A stretch of 28,009 nucleotides of DNA from Saccoglossus kowalevskii (Eukaryota > Hemichordata > Enteropneusta > Harrimaniidae): positions 890,822 to 918,830 of the forward strand of contig NW_003109079.1 of the NCBI RefSeq assembly GCF_000003605.2, read 5' to 3'. The position numbers and the translations under genes are program-made. The notes beneath the pieces were generated by a model that had not been told where the DNA came from, did not search any database, and saw only the letters and a list, made by a program, of their open reading frames with translations. Of this stretch, positions 839 to 27,000 are shown one piece after another (positions within the stretch are counted from its first letter, which is position 1; every line of letters begins with the position of its first letter).

Positions 839-922
839 ATTGACCTAAAAAAGATGCCTCTGGGTAAACTCTCCAAACGTCAGATTGAGAGCGCATATTC
901 AGTATTGTCTGAATTACAAAAG
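839..922 (+). CDS. PARP1: PARP1 exon A (regulatory domain start)
   Basis: 84 nt, 28 codons, phase 0 at both ends. It follows a pyrimidine-containing acceptor (acttctag) and ends before donor gtacgt. It encodes the stretch around [18 protein letters not shown], the first helices of the helical regulatory subdomain that covers the active site until DNA is bound. Confidence 0.94.
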
Positions 923-3900
923 GTACGTTTTCTCTCTTGTATCATTTTATTCATTGCACTGTGATTTCAAAACTGTCATTTATCTCTATAGCGACAGTAT
1001 AATTGGGGTAGATCGGATTGTTTAAGAGAAAAATATTGTTTCACTTCCTGACAACAATATACATACATACATTAAGAGAAATGATCTCTTATTAGTCCCT
1101 ATCCAAAAACAGAGACTTGACAGGGAATTGACCTCTATGCGTGCATGCGTCCATGCATCCATACCTATATTTTAGACATGTCTAACTAGACTGAATGTCA
1201 CATTTTAAAGTTAAAAAATCGTAATTAAACATCAACTTCTGGATTCATATTTCTGACATGTTCATGTTTCAACTGTATTACTACAAACAAAACTATATAT
1301 CTTATATTTGATAACAAACAGGAACTGTGTCATGCATGGGTTGTTGTAAAAGTGTTGGGAGGGTATTTTAGTCAGATCTCTTGTTTAACATCATCATAAT
1401 AACACAGGTTTCATCTTCCTAAATGCAACAGTGCTTGAGATGTAACTGTTGTGCGTATTAATTAGGTTAGCAACCCCACCCCGATGGCCCATCCATGTTT
1501 GAGGCATGTAATTGCACAATTTCTGCTTTCATAAAATCCAAGATGGTGGCAAAAATCACATGACAGCAGTGATACGTGGGAATTGCAAGATGCCTAGCAT
1601 GTTGAAAACTTGTACACATGATTAAATCCAAGATGGTGGACAAATTAATTGACCAAGCAGAATGCTGGAAACAAATTTCAATAGCTCAGACAATAACTTA
1701 CACCAAGTTTCATAACTGTAACTGCAATTCTTATAATATAAGGTCCTCAGCTAATTTGAACTAAAATCCACCGAGCTATGCAAAATCACAAACTAAGTAG
1801 CTGGTCGCCATTTTGATTCATTTGCACCAGTTCATATAAAGTTTCAGGTTTCAATTTTCAGCCATTTTGATTCATTTGCACCAGTTCATATAAAATTTCA
1901 GGTTTCAATTTTCAGCCATTTTGATTCTTTTGCACCAGTTCATATAAAGTTTCAGGTTTCAATTTTCAGCCATTTTGATTCTTTTGCACCAGTTCATATA
2001 AAGTTTCAGGTTTCAATTTTCAGCCATTTGTCAAACAGCTTTACCAAAAATTAGTTACTAAAGAAAGGGAAAAAAAAAAATGGACAATATAATCGGGTCC
2101 TCAACCTTATTGGCTTGAGCCCCTAATAATGACACAGGGAATTGTATGATAAAAATGAGAGGAAAAAAAGTCAATAGTTACAGCTATTGTCGCTTCAACA
2201 GTTTAAGTTTATTATTAAGGCCACAATCTTTTTATTATTTCATTCATTCAAAAAGTACTTTTTCTGCCAAAATTGTTTACCAGTGACTTTCACTACAGCA
2301 GCACTGACATCATGAAGTCTCTAGTGTTCTTTTCATTTCCAATGTTGCAGTTCAGTTACCAGGATTATTCTCCTATACTTTAACTTGACCACTCAAAATC
2401 TAATTTCTGTTTTTCTTCTAATAATTCCACCTCTCCCCAAAATATTTTTAGCTCCGCTGTCGACTTTGTCCGTAGTCTGTGTCAATGTTTTACTTTTTCG
2501 ACTTCTTCTTGAAAACTACATGCCTGAATGCTTTAATACTTGGTGTATATGTACCTTGGGTGGACCTCTCTTAGGTTTGTTCATTTCATGATTATATTTT
2601 CAATTCTCTAATTTTGGTGAATATTTTTGTCATTTTTGGTAAAAAGTGATATTTTCGACTTCTTGTTAAAAACCACAAGTCCAATTGCTTTGATACTATA
2701 CATATTGTTCATTTTCTAATGATATCTTCTGTTCTTTAATTGTAATGTGCATTGCTAACAGCGGAGCTATCTCAGCCGACTGGCTGCTTGTTTTCTAGAG
2801 TAGAATTATAAGAAGATATCATGCTAATCATAGTACAGTCAACAGCTCTGATACATGATACAGAAAACCAGCATATTTTGCTGTCAGGAGTTTTAAAACC
2901 TGACTATTCTCCTGCAATTAATTCTGCAATGAATATGATAGTACTGATTGTAGTCAAATTTATAATACTTGTGTCTTGTGTCAGGATTTTCTTGAAAACC
3001 CAGTCGGGTCTTTTTAGTCTGAATACTTGTGATTGGATATAATCTTCTCTGAAACCACTGGCAGTGTAAATAAGCAATTGTTCAGCAAGTCTTTAAATAT
3101 TTTGTTTCTTGTTACTTTCCCGTAGTTGTTGGATGAAGATAAAGCTACAGACTCGGCCATCTTAGATTGTTCAAATAGATTTTATACTCTGATACCGCAT
3201 GATTTTGGGATGAAGAAACCACCAATGTTGGATAATATTGACATCATCAAGGTAATTAAATGAATCATGGTTTTGTCTACATGTATGAATATATGTATGC
3301 TATTTTAGACCCATTTGTACTGTGCACTGTCATCCATATCCAAATCTGTGGTTATGCAGTGTCAGAACGAATCTGTGGTACTAAGTGAGGCTTGATTAAA
3401 AGTCACGTTACGTTGGAGGGAATCGGGCATGGAACTGCTTCTGCTTCTGGGGCTGCATCTTTGAACCGCTGTATCTGGAACTGAGAGATAGAATCAGCAT
3501 TAACATTCAATCTGCCTGGGATATGTTCAGCATGAAACATGAAGTTGCAAGACGCAGCAGTGATGACCAAGCGACGCATTAATTCCATGATGATTGAAGA
3601 TTTGGATCAACCTTTGTTGTTGATCTGGACAGTTGCCATGTTGTCATAGTTGAAGATGATACGTTTACGATGCCAAAGGTTTCCCCATAACCAGTGATGC
3701 AACAACAATTGGATACAGCTCTTGGAACGCGATGGACAGTGTTGGGTCTGCGTCAAGCGTGAGACTGGCAGGCAGGCAGGCATTCTGCGCAATTTGTCCT
3801 GAGGTATACTTGCTTCCATCTTGATGGTGTCAATCTCTATGCCAAGATACTCAAGGCTGGTAGTTTGACCAACTGTCTTATGTGGTGCAGGTATTCCTAG

Positions 3901-6900
3901 ACGTCGGAAAATCATTGTAATGGTAGCCATGGTTCGATCAGCATCAAAAGAGTGTACATCAACTGTCAAAAAACTATCTAGCAAATGGAAAATAATGTAA
4001 ATACCACAATTGTTCTGTGCAATCCAGCAGATTGCCTCTGACAAGTGGTCCAAAATCTTGGGACTTGATCGAGATCCACATGCCAATCGACAAAGAAGTA
4101 GAACTAGAGCTGTCTCATGAAATACAGATGCCATAAGGATGGATGGATGGATGTTTGTCTGTCTGTTTTACACAACCATGCACCTTTTCCGACATTATGG
4201 ATTGCTGCCACAGCAAAATACTTTCTTATCAATCAAGTCATTGATACTAGGTATTTCTGCATTATTACCTGGTGAAGACAGGTCAACAATCAGACGTTTC
4301 TTAGTGGAGTATTTTTTCTCTGCAACACTAATTGGACTACAGCGATAATTAGTGAACGGTGGTGTAGTAAAAAAACTAATTAAGTAACTGTTTTTTACCT
4401 CTGCTGCAATTTGTTCTGATACAATGGTTGGTTGGTTACGTACTGAGAGAAGGTTACGACAAATCAATGGAGATGTAGGAGGATCCCTGATCCCTGTATC
4501 GAAGCCCTCACGAAGACCAGTGATGAGATAATTAACAAAATGTTTATCTGGATGGCATGACAATTCTTTACTGAGTACATGTATGTCAATGTTAATTTGT
4601 GTTGATGGTTTGTCAATCGAGCTTGATTAGTACGGTCTTTTGGCAAACACTTTCCTTGGACTGACCGAAGGCATAATAAGTGACACAAACGTGGGCGAAA
4701 TTGTAGTTGCTTCTACGACAGCCATTATTGGAATTGCAGTTAATGGAAATTATTGTATTGTGGTGAGACCAGTCTACTTTGCCATTGTGATTTAGCAGAA
4801 TAGCGACTGCCTTTGCAGAGAAAGCATGGTGGTACTCGTAGAAGGCCAGTCCATTGAATCGTTTGGACATGTCCACGATGTCGCATTGGTATGCATCAAG
4901 TTCCTCACGGCGATAGGGTACACCTCACATACAACGTTTTTGTACACCTCAAATGCTAGGATGAACTCTTGGATCGTCAAAGCTCTTTTGTCCTTTAGTG
5001 GCCTGAGGGTTAGAGCTTTATCACCAATAACGATGTGACGTTAACCGTCAGAATAATTATAACCAGGGATAAGGAGACAAGCTAAATTGACTTCAAAGTA
5101 TATCGCGACGAATCAAAGGAGAGACCAGCTTGATATGCGGAAATTGCTCAGATGAAATTCCACGTGAACGCAGTGGATCTGTGACCCCTGCAACGCTGGG
5201 TGGAAAACTTGGATTGATGTTGAATGAAGTTCAAAGGAGGCCACCATCTTGTCTTGCATCAATGTTGTTGTTGTTGTTGTTTGACATCTAGTTACAGAAA
5301 TTCTTCAGTTTATATATAAACTAAACATTGAACCACACAGCCATGTAAATAAATATAAGTGACATGTTTAGATATTATCAAAGTATAGTATATATTTTAA
5401 AAAAATATGTCAATGTGCATTGCCATTTGAAAGATGGCCACACAGCCCTGTCATGTAGTCCCAAACATGAATATGACTTCTGTGGCAAAATGCATGTGTT
5501 GTTACTAGCACTTGCAATTTGCACATACAAAAAAAAAAAAAGTATAGCATATATTTTAAAATGATAATAGGCATGAAGATAAGCTGAAATAATTTCACCA
5601 GTGAATTTCATACAGGCAGTAATCTTTATTGCAGTTCACTTCAAATCACTAAATATCCACTGCGAAGTAACTCAGTTTTCCATATTTGATCTGTTTCTCG
5701 CACTGATTGACAGGTCTATTTTTAGTGCAATCTGGTACTTATGAAATAAATGTTAAAGCGGGGGAGTCGTCACCTGCGCATGCGTCAGATGGCCATAGCG
5801 TGTCATTGTTTACGAACAAGCGTCTACCCATGAGCTTTTGCGTTTTTTTTTACGCGTGTTATCGTCGCTTGGGTCTCAATTCCCACGTGTACACAGGTGA
5901 CGACCCTCTCGCTTTAAGTTTAAATAATTACATGTGCATTGTGATATCTAGAAATACTTGAATTCATTTATGATTATCAGCAAATGGTCTTCTTATATTT
6001 ATGACATATTTATTGATAATTTGATAGAACAAGACTCAGATGTTGGATAACCTGCTGGACATTGAGGTGGCATACAGCTTACTGAAAGGTGGTGACAGCG
6101 GTAAAGATCCTATTGATGCAAATTTTGAAAAACTCAAGTGTGGTATCGAGGTAAGACCCATGTATTCTTGTAAATTTATAAATTCGTGCTTATTTATTAA
6201 TCAGTCAGTGTTATAGTTTTGTGGAAAAAAAAAAATTGATCTGTATATAAGGAAACTTGCTCGTTTGAATTTTGAGATCGCAATGTTATGATGATGTAAT
6301 AATTATTTGTACGCTCCTCAGTTGTGTGACAATTTTGCTGTACGACCTCAGGCTGCTAAAGGCCAGGCTATACGAGGTACTCTAGAATACTTTATACTTC
6401 GCTATTTTCGCTGAAGGGATGATTCCGTGAAAATAAAATCCAGCGAATGTACCTTTTTTTCCCTATATTTCACAATTCAACTCATCAAGAATCAGTGAAA
6501 ATAAATTCCATAAAGAACGCCCAAAAAGCATTTTCAGCGAAAATTAATTCCAGCGAAAATAAAGTATTCCACAGTATATAATAATGTTGCTGATGATAAT
6601 GTTGTTTCGTGACAGGTACTGGAACACAAGAGTGACGAGTTCACAATGATTGAGAAGTATATGAAAAATACCCATGCTGCCACTCATACTCAGTACTCGT
6701 TAGAGTTATTGGATGTAAGTCTTACTTCCATTGTTATTGTTAGAAATTGTATCATTTTCTTTATGGACCACTCCCATTTAAAAAGTAGAATTATCACACA
6801 AATTAGATACCTTCAGGGATAAAATATGCCTCATTGTTTTCTATGTTGACGTTCTCGTATCTATGTTTACTGGTACTTTTCTTGTTTTGAAAGCAAGCTT

Positions 6901-9780
6901 CCCTTTTCCATGTTATGGTCATATTTCAGATGCAATACAACAAGACTAGTATTTAATGCAGTCATTCAACTTCATGTTTTTGGCATATTCACTGAAATTT
7001 TTAATTCAAAATTGTGTTTCTATTTTATTTGTGTCTGTTGATTTGTGTCTAAATTTTGAATATAGGTTTACCTATAACTATACAATAAGAACTCAAAGTT
7101 AAAACGGAAGGGTCGTCACCATGTGCAGGAATTGAGTCCCAAGTGACGATAACAACACACACTAAAAACACAAAGGCTCATAGGTAGACATTTGTATGTA
7201 AACAATGACACGCTATGGCCATCTGACGCATATGCAGGTGGTGACTCCCTCGCTTTAAACCTAACTTATCCTATCTAAGTATATATTGTAATTTGACTTC
7301 TCAGGTATACCAGTTAGACCGTGCTGGGGAATGTTCCAAATATAAGCCGTTCAAACAGTTACACAATCGTCAGTTATTATGGCACGGTTCAAGAACTTCT
7401 AACTATGCTGGTATACTTTCTCAAGGTTTGCGTATAGCGCCACCAGAGGCGCCTGTGGTAAGTTCTATTGTTTACATTTACTTTCCATGCACATTATTTT
7501 TTGAAATTTATACTTACCCCCGGTATTTAGTTCTTTATTCGTATTTAAAACGTAGATTGGTGCTCACAAAAAAATAGTGTTTCTGGTCAAACTGTGTTTA
7601 AAAAATGGGATGTAGAGGAATTTTTTTTTCTAAAAATGTTGACAGCATCCACTCCCACAAAAAGCAACAACTTTTTGTTGAGATTCAAAGGAACTTGCAT
7701 AACAATCTTCAAAGAAAATATTTACACGAAGATATTTGTATTCTTCTATATCCCATCTGAAATCACTTGGTAATTGACCAAGAATGTCTGAATTGTAATT
7801 ACTCCATTTCCCATTGTCCCCCTCTCGCTACCTCCAAATGTTGATTGTGAAATAAGGCTGGTATTCTTTGTGTGTCGTGATTGACAATTCATTGAAACAA
7901 TTTATTTTATTGCGACTATTGTTTTGTATTATTCTCTACAGACTGGTTACATGTTTGGTAAAGGTGTGTACTTTGCTGACATGAGCTCCAAGAGCGCCAA
8001 TTACTGCCGAACCACACCTAGCAACAATATTGGCTTGATGTTGCTATGTGAAGTCGCATTGGGTAATATGTACGAGTTAACAAATGCAAAGTCACTGAGT
8101 AAACCACCAAGTGGAAAGCACAGCACTAAAGGTAAGCAATCATTCATCTTTTACCTTCATCCTGTTGCTGCTAACACATTAACTGCTGAAAGAAGAAAAC
8201 GATATAATCTTTTGAATAGGTGTCATTTTTCGAACATTTCAATCTTTCCTGACGCATCATGCAGCAGGGCGTAAGCATGCAAAGTATTGACACATGTTCT
8301 GCTGATGCAACCCCCCCCCCCCCCCCATTGATTTATTGATTTTTTGTAGTCCACAAGCATAGTGCTGTGAAGTGTCTATAAATTCACATGTTTATTTGAT
8401 TTTGACAGGTCTTGGTGCCACTGGTCCTGATCCCACCGCTGCTATCACTACAAAAGATGGCGTGACTGTGCCCCTGGGCAAAGGTGCTATAGATGGTTCT
8501 CTTAAAACTAGCCTTCTGTATAACGAGTATCCTTTTTGTGAGCTATACAATTCTAACTGAAGTGGATTTCAGTGTTATCGATTTGTAGAGATTCAATTGT
8601 CAACTTATAATGTCAGGTTAATTTTTATATTATGCTTACACACCTGGTTACTAAATGGTGCAGGATTCATACAGACATCAAATGCCAGTGAAAACCTTGA
8701 TGCCAACAGTTGATTTTCCAATCAATGCAAGATCTTGTGTACTGCATGAGACACTGTTTGAATGTCTGTTGCGGAAATCAAATAGTTTGAATAACTTTTT
8801 TTCATATCAATCTTACAGATAGGAATATTGCATTGAGACAATCTTGCTTCATAAAAAATGACTATCATTAAATGTGTTTTTGTAGCACATTATGAAGTGT
8901 AGAAGTGTCCCCCAAAAATTTTGAATGTGACTGTGGTTTTTTCCGTTCGTTTCATGCAGTGAATGGAAAATGGTCTTTTTTAATTTATTTACTGTTCCCA
9001 AATCATAGTACTTGTTTTCGTTGCGATCTGTAGATCACATGACCAACTCTACTGACTTAATGTTTGCACATTCCATTCTAATTTGCTTCATCCCATTGTT
9101 ACCTTATTCTGCTTTTATCAGGGACTGAACAGTCTAGCTTCTTAAGTTTGCAACAATCTGCCAGATATAATTCAAATTTCATTCTCTGATGATATAACAA
9201 AGGCTTAGGAAATTATAATAATGGTTCAGTCTACTGCCTATAATTAAAATTTCTGCAAATCGTGGTTTTTTAGCAGTGAATATTCCTTATATTCCCTCAA
9301 GATGCTTGAAGCGACACTGTCTTCACAACTGTGCATACATGTATGTATAGGGAGGGCGAAAACAATAAATCTCTACATATTGATAGCAGGTAGAGATCTG
9401 TTAAAGCAGGTTGTGCACTCACAGGCAAGAGAGTCATACATATTAAATGTTTTTTCAGATGATAAAGTACTATAGTTAGGTTGTGAGGAATGTTTAATTT
9501 TAACAGCGTGTATGTACGCTTTAGTAGAGAACAGAAGAACACACACAAACGCAGTTTTGAAGACGGTGCCGTTTCAAGCATCAAACGACAGAAATTGTTT
9601 TATGTGAAAAATAACTGTTTGCAGTACAGCAACACATATTTTACAGTTGGGAAGGTTTTCACTGCTTGTAAGTGATTGTATTATCCTTAACCTTAACCTC
9701 TTAGATACATTGTCTATGATGTGGCTCAAGTACAAATGAAATACCTGTGCAAAGCCAAGTTCAACTACAAGATTTACTAA
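839..9780 (+). CDS. PARP1: Poly(ADP-ribose) polymerase 1, C-terminal 322 residues (8 exons, 5' end outside window)
   Basis: Nuclear enzyme that moves ADP-ribose from NAD+ onto proteins and builds poly(ADP-ribose) at DNA breaks. Exons: 839-922, 3126-3251, 6028-6150, 6616-6714, 7305-7457, 7942-8131, 8409-8526 and 9705-9780 (TAA stop). All have GT-AG borders and splice in frame to 322 residues. Local residues 1-140 are the helical regulatory domain ([46 protein letters not shown]). The rest is the catalytic ART domain. The H-Y-E triad is complete: His in WHGSR (exon 5), Tyr in GKGVYFAD (exon 6) and Glu in NEYIVYD (split between exons 7 and 8). The nicotinamide-pocket residues Gly (HG) and Ser/Tyr (SKSANYC) are also present. 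The C-terminus ends about two residues short of the human protein, as judged from memory. Zinc fingers, BRCT and WGR domains must lie upstream. The motifs point to PARP1 rather than PARP2 or PARP3, though only this half is visible. Confidence 0.96.
1807..2030. repeat. 54-bp minisatellite (4 full copies plus a partial)
   Basis: Four head-to-tail copies start at 1807, 1861, 1915 and 1969, with an 8-bp partial copy at 2023. Each unit begins gccattttgattc and contains ttgcaccagttcatataaa. Copies differ by only one or two bases (for example cattt versus cttt), so expansion is recent. It lies in a PARP1 intron. Confidence 0.93.
2450..2794 (+). mobile_element. Family-1 element (pearl/Helentron-like), single-core copy
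   Basis: Starts AGCTCCGCTGTCGAC after a T-run and ends with a subterminal inverted copy of the start (ACAGCGGAGCT, about 2759-2769). The short hairpin CAGCC-gact-GGCTG, then cttgtttt, follows. One core unit (attttggtgaatatttttgtc, then cttcttgttaaaaaccacaag) matches the tandem core of the copy at 12202-13036. The second half of its start hairpin is missing. It resembles the non-autonomous pearl/HINE elements known from bivalves and other invertebrates; that class assignment is an inference. Confidence 0.7.
3126..3251 (+). CDS. PARP1: PARP1 exon B (regulatory domain)
   Basis: 126 nt, 42 codons, phase 0 at both ends. Acceptor cccgtag, donor gtaatt. It carries the hallmark [17 protein letters not shown] of the PARP1-3 regulatory domain, preceded by a variable acidic loop. 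Confidence 0.96.
3403..4134 (-). pseudogene. RT palm/thumb and RNase H remnant of the DIRS-like element
   Basis: Two open segments (3607-4134 and 3403-3588) in different frames. The first holds the altered active-site area (LLDSFLTVD) and [16 protein letters not shown]. The second begins mid-RNase H and contains [13 protein letters not shown]. They are separated by a stop and a frame change, so no functional product is possible. Confidence 0.65.
4195..4563 (-). pseudogene. N-terminal reverse-transcriptase remnant
   Basis: Open segment containing [18 protein letters not shown] and [12 protein letters not shown], typical of the stretch before the RT fingers in DIRS-like elements. It stops at 4195, before the first catalytic aspartate would be reached. 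Confidence 0.6.
4613..5040 (-). pseudogene. Gag-like/ORF1 remnant with zinc-knuckle-like tail
   Basis: Two overlapping frames (from about 5040 to 4792, and 4876-4613) each read as part of the segment that precedes RT in DIRS-like elements: [23 protein letters not shown], then [14 protein letters not shown], then [15 protein letters not shown]. The frame change near 4870 shows decay. Confidence 0.5.
5395..5565. repeat. Short direct repeats with an A-run
   Basis: aaagtatagtatatattttaaa near 5379-5402 recurs as aaagtatagcatatattttaaa near 5539-5560, after an A-run at 5529-5541. This may be a processed or polyA-primed insertion with a duplication, but it is too decayed to classify. Confidence 0.4.
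5757..5913. mobile_element. TTAA-flanked MITE, copy 1
   Basis: 157 bp flanked by TTAA (5753-5756 and 5914-5917). The 20-bp terminal inverted repeats (AGCGGGGGAGTCGTCACCTG at the left; the right end reads AGCGAGAGGGTCGTCACCTG on the other strand) match at 17 of 20. TTAA duplication suggests mobilisation by a piggyBac-like transposase, an inference. It lies in the PARP1 intron before exon C, and a second copy lies in opposite orientation after exon D. Confidence 0.82.
6028..6150 (+). CDS. PARP1: PARP1 exon C (regulatory domain)
   Basis: 123 nt, 41 codons, phase 0 at both ends. Acceptor ttgatag, donor gtaaga. It encodes [18 protein letters not shown] and [10 protein letters not shown], helices of the regulatory subdomain. 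Together with the next exon it is bracketed by two inverted MITE copies (5757-5913 and 7103-7254). Confidence 0.96.
6378..6576. mobile_element. MITE with TACTGT-type ends
   Basis: About 199 bp. The left end (tactctagaatactttat, then ttcgct) and right end (agcgaaaataaagtattc, then cacagta) are imperfect inverted repeats. Internal segments repeat the theme cagcgaaaataaattcc several times. It lies in the PARP1 intron between exons C and D. The ends recall the element at 25444-25654. Confidence 0.65.
6616..6714 (+). CDS. PARP1: PARP1 exon D (end of regulatory domain)
   Basis: 99 nt, 33 codons, phase 0 at both ends. Acceptor cgtgacag, donor gtaagt. It contains [20 protein letters not shown], the last regulatory helix and the linker into the catalytic domain. 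Confidence 0.95.
7103..7254. mobile_element. TTAA-flanked MITE, copy 2 (inverted relative to copy 1)
   Basis: 152 bp flanked by TTAA (7099-7102 and 7255-7258). Its reverse complement aligns along nearly the full length of copy 1, including atggccatagcgtgtcattg and the terminal GTCGTCACC. It lies between exons D and E, so the two copies could pair in the pre-mRNA around exons C and D. Confidence 0.82.
7305..7457 (+). CDS. PARP1: PARP1 exon E (catalytic domain, catalytic His)
   Basis: 153 nt, 51 codons, phase 0 at both ends. Acceptor cttctcag, donor gtaagt. It encodes [18 protein letters not shown], whose His-Gly binds NAD+ and corresponds to human His862-Gly863. It ends with the strictly conserved [11 protein letters not shown]. 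Confidence 0.97.
7942..8131 (+). CDS. PARP1: PARP1 exon F (catalytic domain, catalytic Tyr)
   Basis: 190 nt, entered at phase 0 and left at phase 1, with the Gly codon split into the next exon. Acceptor ctctacag, donor gtaagc. It encodes [22 protein letters not shown], with the Tyr equivalent to human Tyr896 and the Ser and Tyr of the nicotinamide pocket. [10 protein letters not shown] follows. The family's usual Gly before EVALG is Cys here (LLCEVALG). Confidence 0.97.
8409..8526 (+). CDS. PARP1: PARP1 exon G (catalytic domain, ends inside catalytic Glu codon)
   Basis: 118 nt. It completes a Gly codon, then encodes [17 protein letters not shown] and TSLLYN, and stops after the first two bases (GA) of the glutamate codon. 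The donor at 8527 reads GTATCCTTT, the U12-type donor consensus, not a usual U2 donor. Reading past it gives NEYPF, which breaks the family motif, so the exon must end at 8526. Confidence 0.93.
8527..9704 (+). other. U12-type (minor spliceosome) intron in PARP1
   Basis: 1178-bp intron. The donor GTATCCTTT is an exact match to the U12 GT-AG donor consensus. The branch region TCCTTAAC (9684-9691) matches the U12 branch consensus and lies about 14 nt from the acceptor AG, within the usual U12 spacing. There is no long polypyrimidine tract before the AG, again as expected. The intron interrupts the codon of the catalytic glutamate in phase 2. I see no gene inside it; a 61-codon open frame at 9490-9675 has no recognisable features. 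Confidence 0.9.
9705..9780 (+). CDS. PARP1: PARP1 terminal exon H
   Basis: 76 nt: the last base (A) of the catalytic Glu codon, 24 further codons and a TAA stop. It restores [15 protein letters not shown] and a lysine/aromatic tail, matching the C-terminal strand of PARP1. The acceptor (cctcttag) follows two overlapping U12 branch-site-like sequences at 9684-9691 and 9691-9697. The exon is too small to find by open reading frame length alone. Confidence 0.94.
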
Positions 9781-12201: not shown

Positions 12202-13036
12202 AGCTCCGCTGTCGACTTTGTCGAGCGGAGCTTATCATATGAGTGATTGTCCGTCGTCCGGTGTCCGTGTCATGTTTACTTNNNNNNNNNNNNNNNNNNN
12301 NNNNNNNNNNNNNNNNNNNNNNNNNNNNNNNAGTTCATCAAAGCCTGAATGCTTTGATACTTGGTGTATATGTACCTTGGGTAGACCTCTCTCAGATTTG
12401 TTCATTTCATGATCATATCTTCAATTCGCTAATTTTGGTGAATATTTTTGTCATTTTTGGTAAAAAGTGATATTTTCAACTTCTTGTTAAAAACCGCAAG
12501 TCCAATTGCTTTGATATTACATATATAGGTACTACATGTGGACCTCTCTCAGATTTGTTCATTTTGTAATGATATCTTTAATTTTCTAAATTTGGTGAAT
12601 ATTTTTGTCATTTTTGGTAAAAAGTGATATTTTCAACTTCTTGTTAAAAACCACAAGTCCAATTGCTTTGATATTACATATATAGATACTACATATGGAC
12701 CACTCTCAAATTTGTTCATTTCATGATGATATCTTCAATTCTCTAATTTTGATGAATATTTTTGTCATTTTTGGTAAAAAGTGATATTTTCAACTTCTTG
12801 TTAAAAACCACAAGTCCAATTGCTTTGATATTACATATATAGATACTACATATGGACCACTCTCAAATTTGTTCATTTCATGATGATATCTTCAATTCTC
12901 TAATTTTGATGAATATTTTTGTCATTTTTGGTAAAAAGTGATATTTTCTTGTTAAAAACCACAATCATTTATGGTCAAAAATGATATTTTTGAATTCTTG
13001 TTGAAAACAGCAAGTCTCAGCCGAGAGGCTGCTTGT
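12202..13036 (+). mobile_element. Family-1 element with 157-bp tandem core, nested in family 2
   Basis: Starts with a perfect two-part hairpin (AGCTCCGC 12202-12209 with GCGGAGCT 12225-12232; TCGAC 12212-12216 with GTCGA 12220-12224; loop TTT). It continues through cgtcgtccggtgtccgtg and a 50-N gap. About 3.5 tandem units of roughly 157 bp follow (landmark aattttg(g/a)tgaatattt at about 12431, 12588, 12745 and 12902). It ends at the hairpin CAGCC-gaga-GGCTG and cttg. The flanks (tatacta tcttt on the left, acaaaac on the right) are contiguous in the sister unit at 13305-13325, so this is a visible insertion. Confidence 0.78.
12282..12331. other. Assembly gap (50 N)
   Basis: Exactly 50 unknown bases inside the family-1 element. 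A fixed-length placeholder is likely, so the true length is unknown and more core units could be missing here. Confidence 0.97.
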
Positions 13037-16838: not shown

Positions 16839-19800
16839 CTATAAAAAGAGAATTGGTAACAAAAATTGAATTTTTAGTATGCTTTGAAACTAAACACAAA
16901 GAAAGTTTGTGCAAAAACAACACAGTTGTCAGTCTGAAACTGGGTAAGTGCACCTTGTTTATTTTAGCGTTTCAAATGTTTTTCATCTTCAAATCAATAT
17001 TTAATGCATGTATTCAAAAACATTATTTATTACATATTGTTGTCGTATTGAAAATTTAACCACACCATTTTCCCCCTGAAGAAAAATTTTAAAATCTTTC
17101 TGTTTTGGCCCTTAGAAAATATATATAGGAAATATCTGCAGCTAATTACTAATCTACAATTGCCCCTTTTAAAACCAGAAGTTTGTCAGCTAAAGTAAGC
17201 TCATTATTATTGATGTGAAAATGATCCACAGTAGAAAACGTTTACATATATACGTGTACATTGCAACAGCTGAACATTGGCAATTGTTATGTCCAGATTT
17301 TAACCCTAATACCAAGTTCACTGATTCTCGATTGACATTTGTTGATTTCATAATTTTAACACCTGTAGGTGGGGAAAAATCATATCTATTTGGTTCAAAA
17401 ATGTCAATTTTGGCATTCAAAGGATTTAAATACAAATTTTGGTTCAAATTACCTGTCTTGAAATTGATTCTCTGGCACATCTCGCAGAGGATAACCAAGT
17501 CTAATATGATTGGACTAGCAAGAAGCGAATCCTCGCACGTATTGTGCATCACGATGGTATTGTGGCCGCCCATCATAATCTCAGAGGTATATTCGTCCAT
17601 CGCACGCTTACTGTCACCAACGAATGGTACGTATTTAATAACGACGCAGTGATCTGGTTTCTCATTTTCTTTGTACAAGATAGAATTAGACTGGACCATA
17701 TCATCAACTACGTTGCTCTTGGAGATCTCCTTGGAACGGAATTGTTGGGGTGCAGATAGATTCTTTCCGTCGTTGTTGCCAAGGTGATTGTAACTCACAA
17801 TGGATACAGGCTGTGATTCAAAGCAAAATTTAGAAAGAAAAAAAAAAGGCATCAAAATTTTAAATGTTAAATCATGAGTACCGCATTTGCTCTATTGCAT
17901 CAGTAGAAGATTATTTTGCACAATATCCATTACTAGAATAGAGCAAATATGGTAATATTTTATTGTCAGCTTTTTATTTAAAAGGGATACGTTATTAACA
18001 ATTTAACCTATGCAAAAAACAAAGCTTAAAGGCAAGTAAACAATTCCAGACTTATTTGATTATTCGCAACCCAAACAAAGTTTGATTACCAATACGACAA
18101 ATTAAGTTGATTTTTATACTTGTGACTTTTATGTACATGTTAAATTTTTTTGCATGAAATCAAGCATAGCAATCACTCCATTGTATTATCACCAAATTAT
18201 GACCTTGTTAATAATCAGCAAAGATCAAGAACAAGGAAAAAGTGAGTGAATTTCATGAAAGTCACTTTCACAGAATGTGATTACTGAACGACATTCAACA
18301 AATTGTATTGTTGACTGTAGCCTTTATTAGTTATAACTGTAGAAGAAACCAAATCGAGTGTGCACCATATAAATTCATCTTACATTCAGTGCAGTACAAT
18401 CTCTAACAAGTGTGAATTATGTATTTCAACCACAGCCGAATTTTTTGTAGCAACGATCAATGTGATGATCAATGTGAAAAAGACCAGGCTTTAGATAAAT
18501 GTGGATTAGGTTCAATTGTATTGTGTCACTGAAAAAATAAGCTTTGATGGTATGAAACTTGCCCATGTCGCATGTAGGACTGGTTGCAAATGCATGCAGT
18601 TCCTTCAAGTATCAGAAGAGAAACCTACTTTGATACTGATCACAAACATTCACACCAAATTTAAACAAAATCAGTAAAAATGTGCCTGCATAAGGAACAG
18701 GTACAACACTGGCACATAAATTTTTCATTAAATCGTGAGAATAAATTATGTGCACCATACTCTGTAAAAAACAGACTTGTGTCTCGTCTTTGTACTTTCT
18801 TGAACAAGGTATGCAAGAGGGATGATGAAGGACATGTGAAAATAAAACCAATATGGCCAAGTTTGAAGGGAATTATTAAACAAACCAACATATATCAATA
18901 ACCGATTTTCGATGAAATGACCACCAATTGGTTAAATTACATCAAAATCTAAAAATAATAACAATATTCAACCTACTTTGTCTTGCTTTTGAATCAAATT
19001 TAAACAAAACCTATAAAAGTTTATAAGAAAAACTTGTGGAACACTTGAAAGAAACAAAATGGTCACTGGTCAGCCATTTTCAATCAATGAAGGGAATTAT
19101 TACACAAACAGACATGCATTAATAACCGATTTTCGATGAAATGACCACCAATTGGTTAAATTACATCAAAATCTAAAAATAATTGAACAATATTCAACCC
19201 ACCTTGTCTTGCTTTTGAATCAAATTTAAACAAAACCTATAAAAGTTTATAAGAAACACTTGAAAGAAACAAAATGGCCACTGGTCAGCCATTTTCAATC
19301 AAATCAATAAATTGGACATCAGTTTCCCACCAAGAGTGATGTAAATATCAAGTTTAAATTGAAATCAGTCAAGGCATGTCCAAGAAACTGCTGATGACAT
19401 GTTAAAATGTTGAGTTTTGGTGTGTGCTGGGTTTATACAAATTGATGTACATATGCAGACTAATTTGTACCAAAAATCAGTCCAGGCATGTCTGAGTAAT
19501 GATGTTTTATGAATGCACAACCAGAACCCAAAACACAAGTCCATGTTTTAGTAGCATTTATATGTACGTGATGAAGTGTATACCATTGTATTAGTAGACC
19601 TAAACATAACCATTTTATGTTATGAGGCAGCAAAGTAAAAATACTGAATTGACCGAATTTTAGAATTTAACCATAAGCTTCACTCAATTCATTTCTTGAC
19701 CTCGATCTCATAATAAAACAAACCTTTTTTTTTTTTAAATTCTCCACACACAATGTACATATAAAACTGTTTTGTTTTTATTTTACCTCAGTGGTGCCAT

Positions 19801-22800
19801 TCCTATGGCACTGTTAATGCAACATGTAAATATAATTGGTGTGCAGCTTCTGAAGCAAATGAGCTCTCGGGTCACTGAAACGAGAGGACTTTTTACAAAG
19901 CAGAATATGTTAGTGGTACGGGGTGGGGTTGCAAAGAAGGGCCATAACTATTCCAGTCCTTTCAGCTTAATCTAATCTATCAAAACAGAGCGTACCTAAT
20001 ACAACCTTGCCCCATGAGAATCTAGATATTAAATAACATTTGACACAAAACTATGTATTTATTTGTTTGGTGCGTAGTATAAATTTTCCTTGCAGGGTAA
20101 GTTTAATAATATTAAGTTCTGAAATAATGCAGTATCTAAAATTTGTGTATGGAAATTACTGGCTAAAATTTTATCAAAAAATTGAACAAGAACAATGAGC
20201 TCGTCATGATATTATTCAATATTCATGTTTCTAATATTCATTATTATCAGTGTCAAAACTTACGAGTGTCCCCTTCCCCTCCAAAAATGTTATTGTTTGG
20301 CACATTTTTTTAATTTATTGGATACTATAATCTTGATGGATCACAGAACTGTTCCAGTTTTGGTGCTCCATTATGTCATCAGCCATAAATTTTTCCTTTT
20401 TGGACCTACGGTTTAACACCAATTTTTAACAGTGTTGGGGACTATGGAAGTGACAACCAACACTCAAGAATGATCATCTAGACAATACACGTGAACCAAA
20501 ACATTACTTTTTGAAGTTCTGCTAGCATTACCAGATAATAGTGATAATAATAGTGAACCAAGAAACGCATGCAGGGAAAAAATGAATGTAAATACTGGTA
20601 ATATTTCTGACCAGCAATATATCCAAGCAAAATTTGGGAGAAAAATACTAACTAGCGTTTTGGTCAGAAAAGAACATGTCAATTGTTTTTTCGAGGAAAA
20701 ATGATTTCAAAGTTTGAAGATGATCAAATAAAAATTGAGTTATGTAACCACAAGATAAAAGTTTAAAACAGAGACAACTAGACATTTTCCCCTTGTATAC
20801 CTTCTCCATCTAATGATGTTCAGGGCAAGGTAATAAAAGCACTCAAACAAGAGATAGATTGCAATGTAAACCCCCCTCCACCCCTCAACTCCACCCCACC
20901 CCAACCACCCACCCCAACCAAATTCACAGAGAACCAGGTATCATGGAAACATTGTCAAAAACAGAAATTTGAAGAAGCAGAAAAAATAACAGACTGCAAA
21001 GGAAAAGTAATCAATGTACACTATCATGGCACCAGCTTTGTATGTGACCTGCGACCTGTTTAATTCAGCTTATGGGTTGGTCAGAAAAAACTGGAGCTGA
21101 AAATAAAATGCAGATTAAGACTTGACAATTGATTAGAAAATTGTAGATATTACCATGAAATTAAACGAGGTACCTATATATTTAATGTCAAACCAATCAG
21201 GTTTTCAGGAAAAAGTTAAAAATATAACTTTACAAAACATGACAGAAATATTTATCAAAATTAGAGAACTGAAGATATCATTACCAAATGAACAAATTTG
21301 AAAGAACTACCCAAGGTACATTTGTAGTGTGTATGAAAATTCATACAGCTGAAGTTTTTTTAAGAAGTTAAAAATGTAAAGTTGGCATAAACTAACAGTA
21401 AGCAATATGAATAGCTCTGTTCTGTCTACGCAGTCCCGCGCAGAGCTACAAAGGCAATGGCTTCTTGGTATCTTAGAACACTTGAAACGTGAATATTAAA
21501 TTCCAATGAGAAAATCAAGTTTTAAACCATGCAGATATGTCAGTTTGCCAATGTTGGGTATATGATAACGCAGTGAAGGAGTAATACTAATGTCTACCAG
21601 TAGGATAGCAAGAGTTAGTATTGTAACAGCAGATTAGGGAGCATTAACATTGTACCATTAGGATAGAGGGCATTAGCACTGTAAAAGGAAGATAGAGGGC
21701 ATTAGCACACTAACAGTAAGATAGAGGGCATTAACAATGCGTCAGCAGGATAGAGGGCATTAGCATTGTAACAGTAAGATAGAGGGTTTAGCACTGTAAC
21801 AGTAAGATAGAGGGCATTAACAATGCGTCAGCAGGATAGAGGGCATTAGCACTGTAACAGTAAGATAGAGGGCATTGGCACTGTAACAGTAAGATAGAGG
21901 GCATTAACAATGTATCAGCAGGATAGGGGGCATCAACAATGTGGGATTGCAAGGGAGCATTGATCAGTCATCTTACCTTGATACCGGCACTGACAAGGAA
22001 ATCAACCAAGACCGACTTAATTTTTGTCTGACCAGACTTAAAGTCATCCCCACCAATGAATACTTTGTGCTTGGCAGCCAGTTCAATGACGCCAGGAACC
22101 AGTGTATTCTGTGGTGATCCATTAATGTATGCACATCCTTCCAGGATACTAGCAACAGCAAATATAGTCGATGGTGAAACCTCCGATTCACCATGCTTGA
22201 TGGAAGCTAGAAGGTTTGCAGCAGTGTCGTTGAGACCAGACCTGACATCCGAGAAGCGTTCTGTGTTCGCAGTCCATAAAACAATCACCTGTAAAATTAC
22301 AGTTAAATAGTATAGAATACAGAAAGTGCTTAAAATTAAATTTCTGAACCAGAATATGTGGCTAAACTAATGCTTTTATTCAATATTGGGGATAAAGGGT
22401 ACCAAGTGCAATATATACCTTGTCAAGTTCATTATCATTCTTGAAGTTTCTGATATCCTTTCGTATCTGTTCCATCTGTTCCTGCTTACTGCCATTTAGA
22501 ACATTATCAGCACGATCAGCCTGGTTAGCGGCAATGAAGTCTGGAAAGTATATGGATGGGCGTGGCTTGTATTTTTCCATATGCTTGTACAGTTGTTTTT
22601 GTAACTGGACATCCAGTACGCAAGCTCTCTCCATGGCTTCAGCTAAATCCAATGAGGAAATGTCCCAGCCATCGAACACTATATCTTCTGGTTCTACCAT
22701 GGGTAAAATGTCTTTGAAAGGAATGTACACATCTCCATGTTGTCCACTTCCAAGACAAATTGTTGATGCTTGAGTCAGAGAACCAAAATAATTGGCATGC

Positions 22801-25800
22801 TACGAAGAAAGAAAATATTTAAAGAAATTTCTCACAAGTGTCATTTTACAGTGTGTTGCAGAAATCTGTGGAAGTTATTTTTTAATTTCAAAAATGGCTG
22901 CTGGATTTCCAGCATTAGTGTTGTGACAACTGCACATGCATTATAATTTATCTTCAGTTTGCATAAGTACTTTGTAACAATGCAAGACTTACGTTTTGTA
23001 AATATAACGTTTTATAAAGTTAAAGTACTGGGGGGGGGGGGGGGGGGTCTGAATCAACATTACCGGGTAATACCATTTTGTCAGCAGAAATACAGTTATA
23101 AGGTAGTTATTTCACTATACCAGCTTCAGTTCTGTGTTGCATCATCTTATGAAATATGGAAACATACAATGATGCACTCAAAATGAATATTGACAAAATA
23201 TCATTTATATTCTTTTGTCATCGGTACAGACATTTGCGAAATATTACTGGGGGACAACATACGAGCATGTACACTCAGCTAACGAAAAACTGCTGCAAAT
23301 AGGCTCATGAATGATTGATTATATAATCTACCCCCCCCCCCCCTTTTGTCTGAAGTACATTCAGTATCATAGCAACCATGCAACACTCCATCAAGTCAAA
23401 AAACTCATCTATTGACCAATGTTGTTTTGACATCATAGTGAATATAAATTACTCTTGATGTTTTAGTTTCATATCATCCAGTCAGAAAGTGAGAACTGTC
23501 CAGGAATTCTTTTTAAGGCACAAGCTAACATTATGGGTTATGCAATAATGAGCTCATAGAACCTTGATGACAAATCAAGCAAAGCTTAGAATGAACTCGT
23601 GTATGTGCTGAGGGTATTGTGGGAATAAGAATTACAAGTAGGGAATATTTAAATAAGATTGGTAATGTATATGCTCTTTGAGATTTACAATAAGTTATCT
23701 GATTCGTAGTATTGGTATAGAGAACTAAAAGAATAAATTTGATTCCAGCAAACGGATTTATGCAAATTAGTAATTAATATTTGTTTATTAATATTTAATA
23801 TTCATTTCAGCCCCTAATCAGGTCTGGATTATCCAAGAGCAACTACAAATTTCATTGAAATCTGAAGATTGGTGGAAAATTAAAAACTGATTATGTAAAT
23901 TTTAGTATTACTATGCATAATAATTGATAGTATTAATAAATCAAAGAAAGCTTAGAAAGAACTCCCACGTGCTGAGAGTATTGGAGACACATTAAATATA
24001 ATTCAAATTAAATTAAATTAAATATATTCAATTCATTAAATATATTGTCATAGATAGTGATAGTGATGGAAAAGCCGAAAACTAATAATGCAAATCAGAA
24101 AATTAATATGAACAGATTTTAATGGAAAACTAATGAGGTCTGCGCAATATAACTGACCATATATGTACCAAGTTTTATTGAAATGTGATGGAACCCAAAA
24201 AAAATTATAAATTATTATGCTAATTAGGGAATTAATATAAACAGATTTTAACCCCAAACTAATCAGGTTTGTCCTGGAGCAGCTTTGCACTGAGTTTCAT
24301 TGAAATGGAATAATTAGTACTTTAGATATCAGTGTGATAGCTTAAAAGTGGTTAATTATGTAAATTAGTAATTAATATGTACAGATTTTAACCCACAATT
24401 GTTATTGTCTACAGCATCCATGTAAAAAGTTTCATTGAAATGTGATGATTAGTACTTGAGAAATCTGTGAAAGCTGAAAATTAATTAATTATGCAAATTA
24501 GGTAATTAATATACACAATTATTTATCCTAAAACAATCAATCTCTGCATAGTCCTTGAGGATCTATGTACCAAGTTTTATTGAAATGTAATGCTTACTAC
24601 TTGAAACATCAAAAGCTGAAAGTTAATTAATTATGCAAATTAGGTAATTAATATGCACTGACATTACCTTAAAAACTATCAGGTCTGTGCAGTGTCCTAT
24701 GACATCTATGTACCAAGTTTCATTGAAATGTGATGATTAATACTTGAGATATCAGTGGAAAAACCAAAAATTGACTAATCATTATGCAAATTAGGTAATT
24801 TTTACCAAAAACTAATCAAAACCAAGCATTGGTTCAGAGCATCCATGTACCAAGTTTCATCAAAATGCAATAAGTGGTTCTTTAGATATCAATGGAACAG
24901 CTAAGAATTAGCTTATTATCATGCAAATTAGGTAATTAATATGCATGAAATTTTACCAAAACCTAATCAAATCTGCGCATTAGCCCAGAGCATCTATGCA
25001 CCAAGTTTCATCAAAAACTGATGTATGGTTCTTGAGATATCAATGGAACAGACGGACACACATACACACACACACACACACACACATACAGACACACTAA
25101 CCGCAAAGACTCCCATTTTGTGCTTCGCACATGGGAGTCAACAAAGGTTGAAACTTGAACTCTGCCTATAGGACAGAATAAATATGTCCCAGTACAGTGC
25201 CTTGCTCAAAACAGACCCTAGAGGGTCTATGCTCAAAATAATGAAAATTATAGAATTAATAGTTTGGTGCACGTCTATATCATTAAGTGGTCTACCCTAA
25301 CCTCTGTTAATGGGCACCTCTAAAGAGCAGCTGCCTGTTTATAGCAGCTGCGGCCCGACAGTCCAGGGCAAATATTGGAATATTTTTCTTTTCTCTTACT
25401 GATTTCTGCAGGATGTTTTTCTGTGTAAATTATTGTTTTCAATTACTGTAAAATGACTAATTTTCACTGGGTTTAAATTTCGTTGATTTAGCATTTCAGG
25501 CATATTCAGTGGGTTTTAAATTAACGTTTTATCATTTAGATAATTTGTTCTATGCTAAATTTTACATATTCACCGGGTTTTAATTTGGCTCATTTTCCAG
25601 TCAGCGAAATAAGCAGAATTAAAACTCAGTGAACAATTAACCCTTTTTACAGTATGCCATTGCTGCCCCCTGAGAAATGTACACTGTATAGAGCACCCTC
25701 AAGCAGAAAGAATTCACAGTCCTGCTGTTTGAGGGAGATCACACATGCATAAATTAACATAAGCTGAAGGCTGAAGGCTGATAACAGATCGATTATACCC

Positions 25801-26634
25801 TTGTTAATGCTTTGAAATTTGGAAAAATATGATTTATACGTGATCATTGAAATGTGTGCACGTTTTTTTTTTTTTTGTCCCCTTGTGATTAATACAGTGG
25901 CTAATCAGACAGAACAAGTATTAGTGATTGTTGGAGTTTTAGAGTGTGAATTGTCAAGTTTAATGATATAGGCTTGCATTACATTACCCAACTGTTTTTT
26001 ATTCTATAACTTCCATTATTTTGAGGATACGGTTATTTCGACACATAAACATCCATCAACTTCAACAACCACTACCACACGAATACAGGAGTTGATCACT
26101 AGGTAACTTACTCTCAAGAAATTAGCCCATAAAAAGGTATTAGGAAAATGTACAGAATTTTTGTTAAAAAGTTAGCCTGTACTCCAGGGCTGCCTCCAGT
26201 ATTAATTGACACTACTGAACAAATGCTGCACTTTGTACACAGCTGGATGTGATTGTCGATAATATTTTATTCTAGGGGGGAAACAATGCAACCTTCCACA
26301 TGAAAAGATCTTTAGCAACGGACAGACATTCATTGTGCCTGTTGCCTACAAGTTATCAACCTACCTGCATGCCACTTTTGGTTTCCCATGACAGACCGAG
26401 TTTATTGGCAATGACGGCTGCTGTAACAGTTGTGCCATTATTGCCGCCCCATCCTACCAACATGCAGCCAACTCTGGGTTTCTTGCGTTCAGTACGGAAC
26501 TTGAACTGAGTCGAGACTGGTACAGCTCTCATGGTACCATTGTCCTTGAGTATTTCGGTTGTTTCATACTTGTAGTCACTGATGATAAAGTTTTCAGTGT
26601 AACTTACGTTGGGACTATCCACTTTGAATGCCAT
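16537..26634 (-). CDS. ISYNA1: Inositol-3-phosphate synthase, complete (5 exons, 540 aa)
   Basis: Cytosolic NAD-dependent lyase/isomerase that turns glucose 6-phosphate into inositol 3-phosphate, the committed step of inositol synthesis. Exons on the - strand: 26634-26365, 22799-22419, 22288-21977, 17810-17453 and 16838-16537 (TAG). All have GT-AG borders and join in frame. Residue landmarks: Rossmann NAD loop GWGGNNG 61-67, FDGWDISSL 132-140, LWTANTERF 221-229, [11 protein letters not shown] 273-283, [11 protein letters not shown] 296-306, [10 protein letters not shown] 327-336, [12 protein letters not shown] 380-391. These include the conserved lysine-rich active-site motifs. The length is close to the 558-residue human enzyme; the tail after LEHK is divergent, as is usual. 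Start chosen at 26634 (context AAAATGG). An in-frame ATG at 26664 would add ten residues. Confidence 0.97.
16839..17452. other. ISYNA1 intron 4
   Basis: 614-bp intron between exons 4 and 5, AT-rich. No repeat or other gene was recognised; long open frames here are extensions of the flanking exons. Confidence 0.8.
17453..17810 (-). CDS. ISYNA1: ISYNA1 exon 4
   Basis: 358 nt, entered at phase 0 and left at phase 1 (Ala codon split). Acceptor aatcacag, donor gtaatt. It encodes [49 protein letters not shown] and [10 protein letters not shown], the most conserved part of the enzyme, which forms the tetramer core and active site. Confidence 0.97.
17878..17954. mobile_element. Small foldback MITE
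   Basis: The ends TACCGCATTTGCTCTATT (left) and aatagagcaaatatggta (right) are inverted repeats matching at 16 of 18, enclosing about 40 bp. This is typical of a very short TIR element or its solo palindrome. Confidence 0.65.
18780..19320. repeat. 224-bp direct repeat (about two copies)
   Basis: gaagggaattatta at about 18865 and 19089, and gttaaattacatcaaaatct at 18931 and 19155, give a 224-bp period. Units contain ataaccgattttcgatgaaatgacc and caaaatggccactggtcagcc. The second theme resembles the aatggccgccagtcggcc part of family 2. Confidence 0.8.
21050..21447 (-). mobile_element. Degenerate family-1-like element, reverse orientation
   Basis: Read on the - strand, it has a start hairpin AGCTCTG/CAGAGCT (21447-21441 and 21419-21413). 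Core-like sequence follows whose complement matches the family-1 unit (caaatttgttcattt, then gatatcttcagttctctaattttgat). It is much more diverged than the copies at 2450, 12202 and 15310, and its other end is unclear. Confidence 0.5.
21604..21950. repeat. 29-bp minisatellite (about 12 copies)
   Basis: Units start with gatag at 21604, 21632, 21662, 21691, 21720, 21749, 21778, 21805, 21835, 21864, 21893 and 21922, with spacing 27-30 bp. There are two unit types: gatagagggcattagcactg followed by taacagtaa, and gatagagggcattaacaatg followed by cgtcagcag. They partly alternate, suggesting a 58-87-bp higher-order unit. The array sits just inside ISYNA1 intron 3, 27 bp from the exon 3 donor. Confidence 0.93.
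21977..22288 (-). CDS. ISYNA1: ISYNA1 exon 3
   Basis: 312 nt, 104 codons, phase 0 at both ends. Acceptor ttttacag, donor gtaaga. It holds [44 protein letters not shown] and [11 protein letters not shown]. It is separated from exon 2 by the gene's shortest intron (130 bp). A 29-bp minisatellite begins about 25 bp past its donor. Confidence 0.97.
22289..22418. other. ISYNA1 intron 2
   Basis: 130 bp with donor gtatat and acceptor ttttacag. Nothing else is visible. Confidence 0.9.
22419..22799 (-). CDS. ISYNA1: ISYNA1 exon 2
   Basis: 381 nt, 127 codons, phase 0 at both ends. Acceptor cttcgtag, donor gtatat. It begins [10 protein letters not shown] and continues through [10 protein letters not shown] and the [11 protein letters not shown] segment to NELDK. 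The exon starts about 70 nt before the first in-frame ATG, as the family alignment requires. Confidence 0.96.
23580..23720. repeat. Dispersed repeat, copy 2
   Basis: Matches 11515-11660 in the same orientation through gcttagaatgaactc, gtgctg, gggaatattta and gattcgtagtatt. See copy 1. Confidence 0.55.
23740..25140 (-). mobile_element. Family-3 element: hairpin end plus ~140-bp tandem core
   Basis: On the - strand it starts with hairpin 25139-25108 (GACTCCCAT/ATGGGAGTC outer stem, GTGC/GCAC inner stem, 3-nt loop), then a TG/CA microsatellite. About eight core units follow. Landmark accaagttt(c/t)at occurs near 24170, 24293, 24431, 24570, 24712, 24848 and 25000, and each unit carries gagatatc and ttatgcaaattaggtaattaatatg. 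It is non-coding. The far end near 23740 is approximate. Confidence 0.75.
25061..25086. repeat. (CA)n microsatellite
   Basis: An almost pure run of CA dinucleotides beside the family-3 hairpin. A microsatellite near one end is common in Helentron-derived elements. Confidence 0.9.
25444..25654. mobile_element. MITE with TACTGTAAAA ends
   Basis: 211 bp from TACTGTAAAA (25444) to TTTTACAGTA (25654), perfect 10-bp terminal inverted repeats. Internal repeats contain cactgggtttaaatt / cagtgggttttaaatt / caccgggttttaattt. TA ends suggest a TA target duplication. Confidence 0.75.
26365..26634 (-). CDS. ISYNA1: ISYNA1 exon 1 (start and NAD-binding loop)
   Basis: 270 nt, 90 codons, ending in phase 0 at donor gtaggt. 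It encodes the N-terminal strand and the glycine-rich GWGGNNG dinucleotide-binding loop, ending at SWETKSGMQ. The ATG has A at -3 and G at +4, better context than the in-frame ATG ten codons upstream. Confidence 0.95.
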
Positions 26635-27000
26635 TTTTGATGAAGAGAAAACACCTACGCCCATGCGAGAAAAAACGGGTTTAATTTAATACAGCTATAA
26701 AAAGCCAAAATTGCTATAAAAAATAAACACAATTAAAATATACTGGCTGTAAACTTCCCACCATACAACCACGAAGTATATGTGTCGGCCAATCAGGTTC
26801 TCCGATAAGCGATGACGTGTTGGTTGGATGTCGTTGACCTTTCAGTGAACTGTGTCTTCCATGTCCGACGAATTTTCTAGAGCCGGCGTCGAGCCCAGAC
26901 TACAGACCGGTGCGCGTCGCTTTCAGTATGTTCGGAATATATTTTAACGATTCAAAGGTAAAAAAAAACGAAGATGATATTACTGGGTTGGGTCATGGAA
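26635..27000. promoter_or_regulatory. ISYNA1 upstream region, possible shared promoter
   Basis: Shortly upstream of the ISYNA1 ATG lie a CCAAT box (ggCCAATCAg, 26789-26796), a CRE-like TGACGT (26813-26818) and a patch richer in CpG (26860-26920) than the rest of the window. This suits a housekeeping, possibly bidirectional, promoter. The transcription start cannot be placed from sequence alone. Confidence 0.45.
26928..26957 (+). CDS. Possible first coding exon of a divergent gene
   Basis: ATG with A at -3 opens ten codons (MFGIYFNDSK) directly followed by donor gtaaaa, just past a CpG-rich patch and pointing away from ISYNA1. The peptide is not recognised. Ten codons and a weak donor can occur by chance, so this is only a candidate. 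Confidence 0.2.

What the first reader, a model, noticed from the sequence alone, without database searches (positions are those of the whole stretch)
8524..9708. U12-type intron splits the catalytic glutamate codon of PARP1
The donor is GTATCCTTT and the branch region TCCTTAAC lies about 14 nt from the AG with no polypyrimidine tract, so all three minor-spliceosome hallmarks are present. The exon boundary falls inside the codon for the Glu equivalent to human Glu988: GA in exon G, A in exon H. Production of active enzyme therefore depends on the minor spliceosome. Retention of this intron would read NEYPF and end soon after, giving a protein with the Glu kept but the last strand lost. Two overlapping branch-like motifs (9684-9691 and 9691-9697) are also unusual.
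Basis: partly seen in the sequence, partly recalled or inferred. Interest (0 to 1): 0.72.

Follow-up and report, generated by a model that had tools for sequence, protein, structure and literature searches.

The report
Known minor-class intron in PARP1
The last intron of this animal's PARP1 gene looks like a textbook rare-type (U12) intron that cuts the codon of the catalytic glutamate; what appears to be the same intron is already published in mouse, so it is real but ordinary.

Summary
PARP1's last coding intron is 8527-9704 (1178 nt, phase 2) and splits GA|A, the codon aligned to human Glu988. Its donor matches U12 consensus 9/9 and U2 4/9; TCCTTAAC (8/8) lies 14 nt from the intron end. None of 18 other modelled PARP1 introns has both signals this well. 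The genome encodes U6atac (136 bits). U12 snRNA was not found in three searches.

It is not new. PARP1 is a published minor-intron gene, and the mouse 'Parp1_U12_intron' primer ends CTG TAT AAT GA, consistent with the same codon and phase (PMC12332006).

Corrections: the polypyrimidine criterion does not discriminate in this gene; the second branch-like motif lies only 8 nt from the intron end (published range 10-20); a Glu-keeping retained frame follows from GA + GTATCC.

Side observation: PARP1 and a PARP2-like paralogue both lack the C-terminal Leu-Trp that contacts HPF1 in human PARP1, and an HPF1 profile gave no candidate while PARG rang.

The parts
8409..8526 (+). PARP1 penultimate coding exon, ends ...CTG TAT AAC GA (L Y N, first two bases of the Glu codon)
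   Evidence: spliced translation; tblastn
8527..9704 (+). U12-type GT-AG intron, 1178 nt, phase 2, last coding intron of PARP1
8527..8535 (+). U12 donor GTATCCTTT, 9/9 to RTATCCTTT, 4/9 to the U2 donor consensus (recalled)
   Evidence: U12 consensus as printed in PMC8199999
9684..9691 (+). U12 branch site TCCTTAAC, 8/8, A9690 14 nt before the last intron base
9690..9697 (+). second overlapping branch-like octamer ACCTTAAC, 7/8, A9696 only 8 nt before intron end; probably not used (inference)
   Evidence: sequence; published range 10-20 nt
9703..9704 (+). acceptor AG
9705..9780 (+). last PARP1 coding exon: third base of Glu codon, [24 protein letters not shown], stop
8558..8560 (+). TGA that would end the intron-retained reading frame after [12 protein letters not shown]
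839..8131 (+). six further PARP1 exons (839-922, 3126-3251, 6028-6150, 6616-6714, 7305-7457, 7942-8131); the six introns that follow them have U2-like donors (8/9 each)
   Evidence: PARP regulatory and catalytic domains

Best explanation
The feature is the U12-type last coding intron of PARP1, most likely inherited from an ancestor shared with mammals. It is removed by the minor spliceosome: U11/U12 read GTATCCTTT and TCCTTAAC, and U6atac then pairs with UCCUUU of the donor. Removal joins GA to A, rebuilds the catalytic Glu codon and attaches the last 24 residues of the ADP-ribosyltransferase fold. If the minor spliceosome is limiting, the intron stays and translation would stop after nine foreign residues, giving a C-terminally truncated and most likely inactive PARP1, or the RNA is kept in the nucleus or degraded. 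Shown here: sequence, phase, position, contrast with the other introns, U6atac gene. Inferred: shared ancestry, use by the minor spliceosome in this species, and the fate of the unspliced RNA.
For: Donor 9/9 and branch 8/8 at a junction fixed by protein homology. Of 18 other PARP1 introns, donor scores are 3-7/9 in 17; the 18th (8/9) was a wrong machine junction, corrected to 6/9. Best branch score among the 18 is 7/8 (two introns, A at 9 and 24 nt). Four PARP2-like introns score 3-5/9 at the donor. A U6atac gene scores 136.2 bits in L013 and a second copy 111.8 bits in L014; its AAAGGA is complementary to UCCUUU of the donor. The mouse Parp1 U12-intron forward primer ends ...CTG CTG TAT AAT GA (L L Y N GA), consistent with the same codon and phase. 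PARP1 is called a minor-intron (U12) gene in four papers seen in passages.
Against: No RNA data. U12 snRNA was not found by Rfam RF00007 (44 of 18940 candidates scored) or by two human-like probes; U4atac requests did not complete (the last is) and U11 was not searched. Base -1 is A, which is disfavoured in phase 2 GT-AG U12 introns (PMC7367187, passages), though the Glu codon forces it. One other intron of the gene (948 nt, after human residue 583) also leans to U12 in part: donor 7/9, branch 7/8, but U2 donor 7/9 and the branch A is 24 nt out.
Confidence: 0.94

Rival explanations
1. The intron has U12-like ends but is removed wholly or partly by the major spliceosome, as described for some dual-use sites.
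For: GT-AG ends; pyrimidine-rich 3' end (0.76); [quoted passage not shown] U12 snRNA not found.
Against: U2 donor score 4/9, against 7-8/9 for 16 of the 18 other introns after the correction (two have 5/9); both U12 motifs are perfect.
Confidence: 0.04
2. The Glu-keeping retained frame is a selected switch that makes a special truncated PARP1 rather than a by-product.
For: The frame stays open for 10 codons after the Glu codon and keeps Glu and Tyr; p38MAPK-controlled U6atac as a switch for minor introns is published (PMC3728624, abstract and passages).
Against: GA plus the GTATCC donor necessarily reads Glu-Tyr-Pro; the nine foreign residues need no selection; 23 native residues of the fold are lost.
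Confidence: 0.03

Closest known systems
Mouse Parp1 U12-type intron (primer Parp1_U12_intron, PMC12332006)
   Same: same gene, U12-type; the exon primer ends on the first two bases of the same Glu codon; retention rises when Rnpc3 (65K) is lost (n = 2 for Parp1)
   Different: other species; the mouse splice junction itself is not printed in the passage seen, and intron sequence and length were not compared
Minor-class (U12-type) GT-AG introns in general
   Same: donor, branch site, distance, phase other than 0
   Different: base -1 is A because of the Glu codon; a tandem CCTTAAC gives a second, poorly placed branch-like motif

Membership tests
U12-type (minor) intron | donor (A/G)TATCCTTT | tested here: met
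   9/9; consensus from PMC8199999
U12-type (minor) intron | branch site TCCTTAAC 10-20 nt from 3' splice site | tested here: met
   8/8, A at 14 nt; range from PMC8199999
U12-type (minor) intron | no polypyrimidine tract | tested here: inconclusive
   pyrimidine fraction 0.76, not lower than in the other introns of the gene
U12-type (minor) intron | genome encodes U6atac, an RNA specific to the minor spliceosome | tested here: met
   136.2 bits against a gathering score of 33
U12-type (minor) intron | genome encodes U12, U11 and U4atac snRNAs | tested here: inconclusive
   U12 not found (not proof of absence); U4atac requests unanswered; U11 not searched
U12-type (minor) intron | removed by the minor spliceosome in vivo | not testable with these tools
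   no RNA data
Orthologue of mammalian PARP1 minor intron | same codon and phase | tested here: inconclusive
   GA|A in NEYIVYD here; the mouse exon primer ends TAT AAT GA, which fits but does not print the junction
PARP1 | PARP regulatory plus catalytic domain, PARP1-like sequence upstream | tested here: met

The most novel reading that the evidence does not exclude
The intron acts as a regulated off-switch set exactly on the catalytic Glu codon: low U6atac yields a truncated PARP1 that still binds DNA breaks through its zinc fingers, keeps the Glu but lacks the last strand, and acts as a dominant-negative DNA-break reader until stress restores minor splicing.
Probability: 0.05. Interest if true: 0.6.

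Novelty: already known. Interest (0 to 1): 0.22.

Why it matters
It adds a further animal in which PARP1 carries a minor intron at the catalytic Glu codon, in line with an old, position-conserved intron, and it makes supply of a main DNA-damage ADP-ribosyl transferase dependent on the minor spliceosome. That link is already discussed for cancer (PMC12332006, passages), so the gain here is small.

Tried and rejected
Rejected: chance motifs (joint occurrence at a protein-defined junction). Rejected: the overlapping second branch motif as important in function (8 nt from the end, outside the published 10-20 nt). Rejected: lack of a polypyrimidine tract as evidence.

Led nowhere: U12 snRNA by Rfam family and by two probes. 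Searches for U4atac and with a third U12 probe did not complete. Four papers on minor introns searched for PARP in the main text (supplements not seen) gave none: PMC2831892, PMC7367187, PMC10639083, PMC6865273. No passage that I saw says that this intron splits the catalytic Glu codon (paper searches; only listings and passages were read), so I cannot say whether that detail is in print. PMC5358835 had PARP1 only as an apoptosis stain.

Machine splice models were wrong or doubtful for two PARP1 introns. The one after human residue 714 was corrected. The one after residue 489 is unresolved, because the stretch between human residues 489 and 518 had no tblastn match. Residues 199-240 also had no match and may hide a further exon.

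Full report
Observation. The last coding intron of the PARP1 gene in the window is 8527-9704, 1178 nt, phase 2. Joining the eight window exons gives an uninterrupted reading frame that ends in [30 protein letters not shown]; its translation matches the PARP regulatory and catalytic domains (PF02877 113.3 bits, PF00644 265.2 bits).

U12 type. The donor GTATCCTTT is a 9/9 match to (A/G)TATCCTTT and only 4/9 to the U2 donor consensus. TCCTTAAC is an 8/8 match, with its second A 14 nt before the end of the intron, inside the 10-20 nt given by PMC8199999 (passages). As a control I modelled 19 introns of the gene over 58 kb of the contig. In 17 of the 18 others the donor scores 3-7/9. The 18th scored 8/9 through a wrong machine junction; the hand-corrected junction scores 6/9 and looks U2-like (8/9). 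One of the 17 (after human residue 489) is an unresolved model. The best branch-site score among the 18 is 7/8, in two introns; one of these (after residue 583) also has the 7/9 donor, but its U2 donor score is 7/9 and its branch A lies 24 nt out. Four introns of a PARP2-like gene on another contig score 3-5/9 at the donor. Each motif alone occurs in 28 kb about as often as chance allows. Over about 68 kb on both strands, 1 of 7434 GT sites and 2 of 6670 AG sites carry them, this intron included, so both at one protein-defined junction by chance is very unlikely (product about 4e-8).

Minor spliceosome. A U6atac probe matched twice in the genome, once exactly. Rfam confirms both as U6atac at 136.2 and 111.8 bits against a gathering score of 33. 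Its AAAGGA is complementary to UCCUUU of the donor. U12 snRNA was not found: Rfam RF00007 scored only 44 of 18940 candidates, and two human-like probes found nothing. U4atac requests did not complete and U11 was not searched. The machinery is therefore shown by one of its four specific RNAs.

The pyrimidine fraction before the AG (0.76) is as high as in any other modelled intron of the gene, so this hallmark says nothing here. The second branch-like motif is ACCTTAAC at 9690-9697, 7/8 and only 8 nt from the end; it is probably a harmless tandem CCTTAA. The retained frame [12 protein letters not shown] then stop is right, but GA followed by any GTATCC donor must read Glu-Tyr-Pro, so keeping the Glu is a by-product. 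Retention would replace the last 23 residues by nine foreign ones. Because this is the last coding intron, no known exon junction would lie downstream of the new stop (introns in the 3' untranslated region were not examined), so classic junction-dependent decay is not expected; nuclear retention, or decay through the long 3' untranslated stretch, is then more likely (inference). Against this, a review says that most retained mouse minor introns led to decay and names Parp1 among the genes (PMC8199999, passage).

Comparison with the known. PARP1 is described as a minor-intron (U12) gene in PMC8199999, PMC12332006, PMC7312986 and PMC5435706 (passages). PMC12332006 prints the primer 'Parp1_U12_intron' CGACACCTGCCTGCTGTATAATGA used on mouse cells. 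In frame it reads D T C L L Y N and then GA, so the primer stops on the very bases where the exon stops here. The junction itself is not printed in what I saw and the reverse primer was not mapped, so identity of codon and phase is a strong inference, not a test. In that paper the mouse intron is retained more when Rnpc3 is lost (n = 2 for Parp1). The intron here is thus very probably the orthologue of a published one. A paralogue in the same genome, closest to PARP2 among solved chains (61.6 bits, PARP1 34.2), has its Glu inside one exon (TLNYNEFIVY), so the intron is not shared by both paralogues in this species. The collections offered hold prokaryotes, viruses and plasmids, so I searched no other animal genome; the age of the intron is not tested.

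Side observation. PARP1 here ends KFNYKIY and the PARP2-like gene ends KFHFK. Human PARP1 ends in Ser-Leu-Trp, residues important for binding HPF1 together with His826 and Leu985 (PMC7884425, passages). In the alignments the equivalents of His826 and Leu985 are kept here; only the tail is missing. A search of the genome with the HPF1 profile gave 0 candidates, while PARG as a control rang in two places, one with a stop inside. This would fit a lineage that lost HPF1 together with both tails. The control is a single family, the HPF1 profile rang in none of the 14 control genomes either, and the tool warns that silence is no proof of absence.

Verdict. It is of low interest in itself.

Noticed in passing
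window 9706-9780; L012:7604-7753: Both PARP1 (...KFNYKIY*) and a PARP2-like paralogue (...KFHFK*) lack the C-terminal Leu-Trp that in human PARP1 contacts HPF1, and an HPF1 profile search of the genome gave no candidate while PARG rang: possible joint loss of HPF1 and its docking tail. His826 and Leu985 equivalents are kept in PARP1.
   Followed up: partly
window 5753-5847 and 7164-7258: 95-nt inverted-repeat arms, 87% complementary, in two different PARP1 introns with two PARP1 exons between them: could fold the pre-mRNA or favour exon circularisation.
   Followed up: no
window 3607-5040, minus strand: Long open frames inside PARP1 intron 3252-6027 that look to me, from recall, like a decayed retroelement; no Pfam match for the two tested, 3607-4167 and 4195-4626.
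   Followed up: no
window about 17190-26685, minus strand: Exons of a myo-inositol-phosphate synthase gene, tail-to-tail with PARP1.
   Followed up: no
window 1807-2029, 12384-12948, 21615-21933, 24415-24754: Tandem arrays with units of 54, 157, 29 and 143 bases; the first lies in a PARP1 intron.
   Followed up: no
window 9364: AATAAA inside the U12 intron, a possible signal for intronic polyadenylation if splicing is slow.
   Followed up: no
L014:1490-1620: Second U6atac copy (111.8 bits) with a changed stem, functional gene or pseudogene.
   Followed up: no
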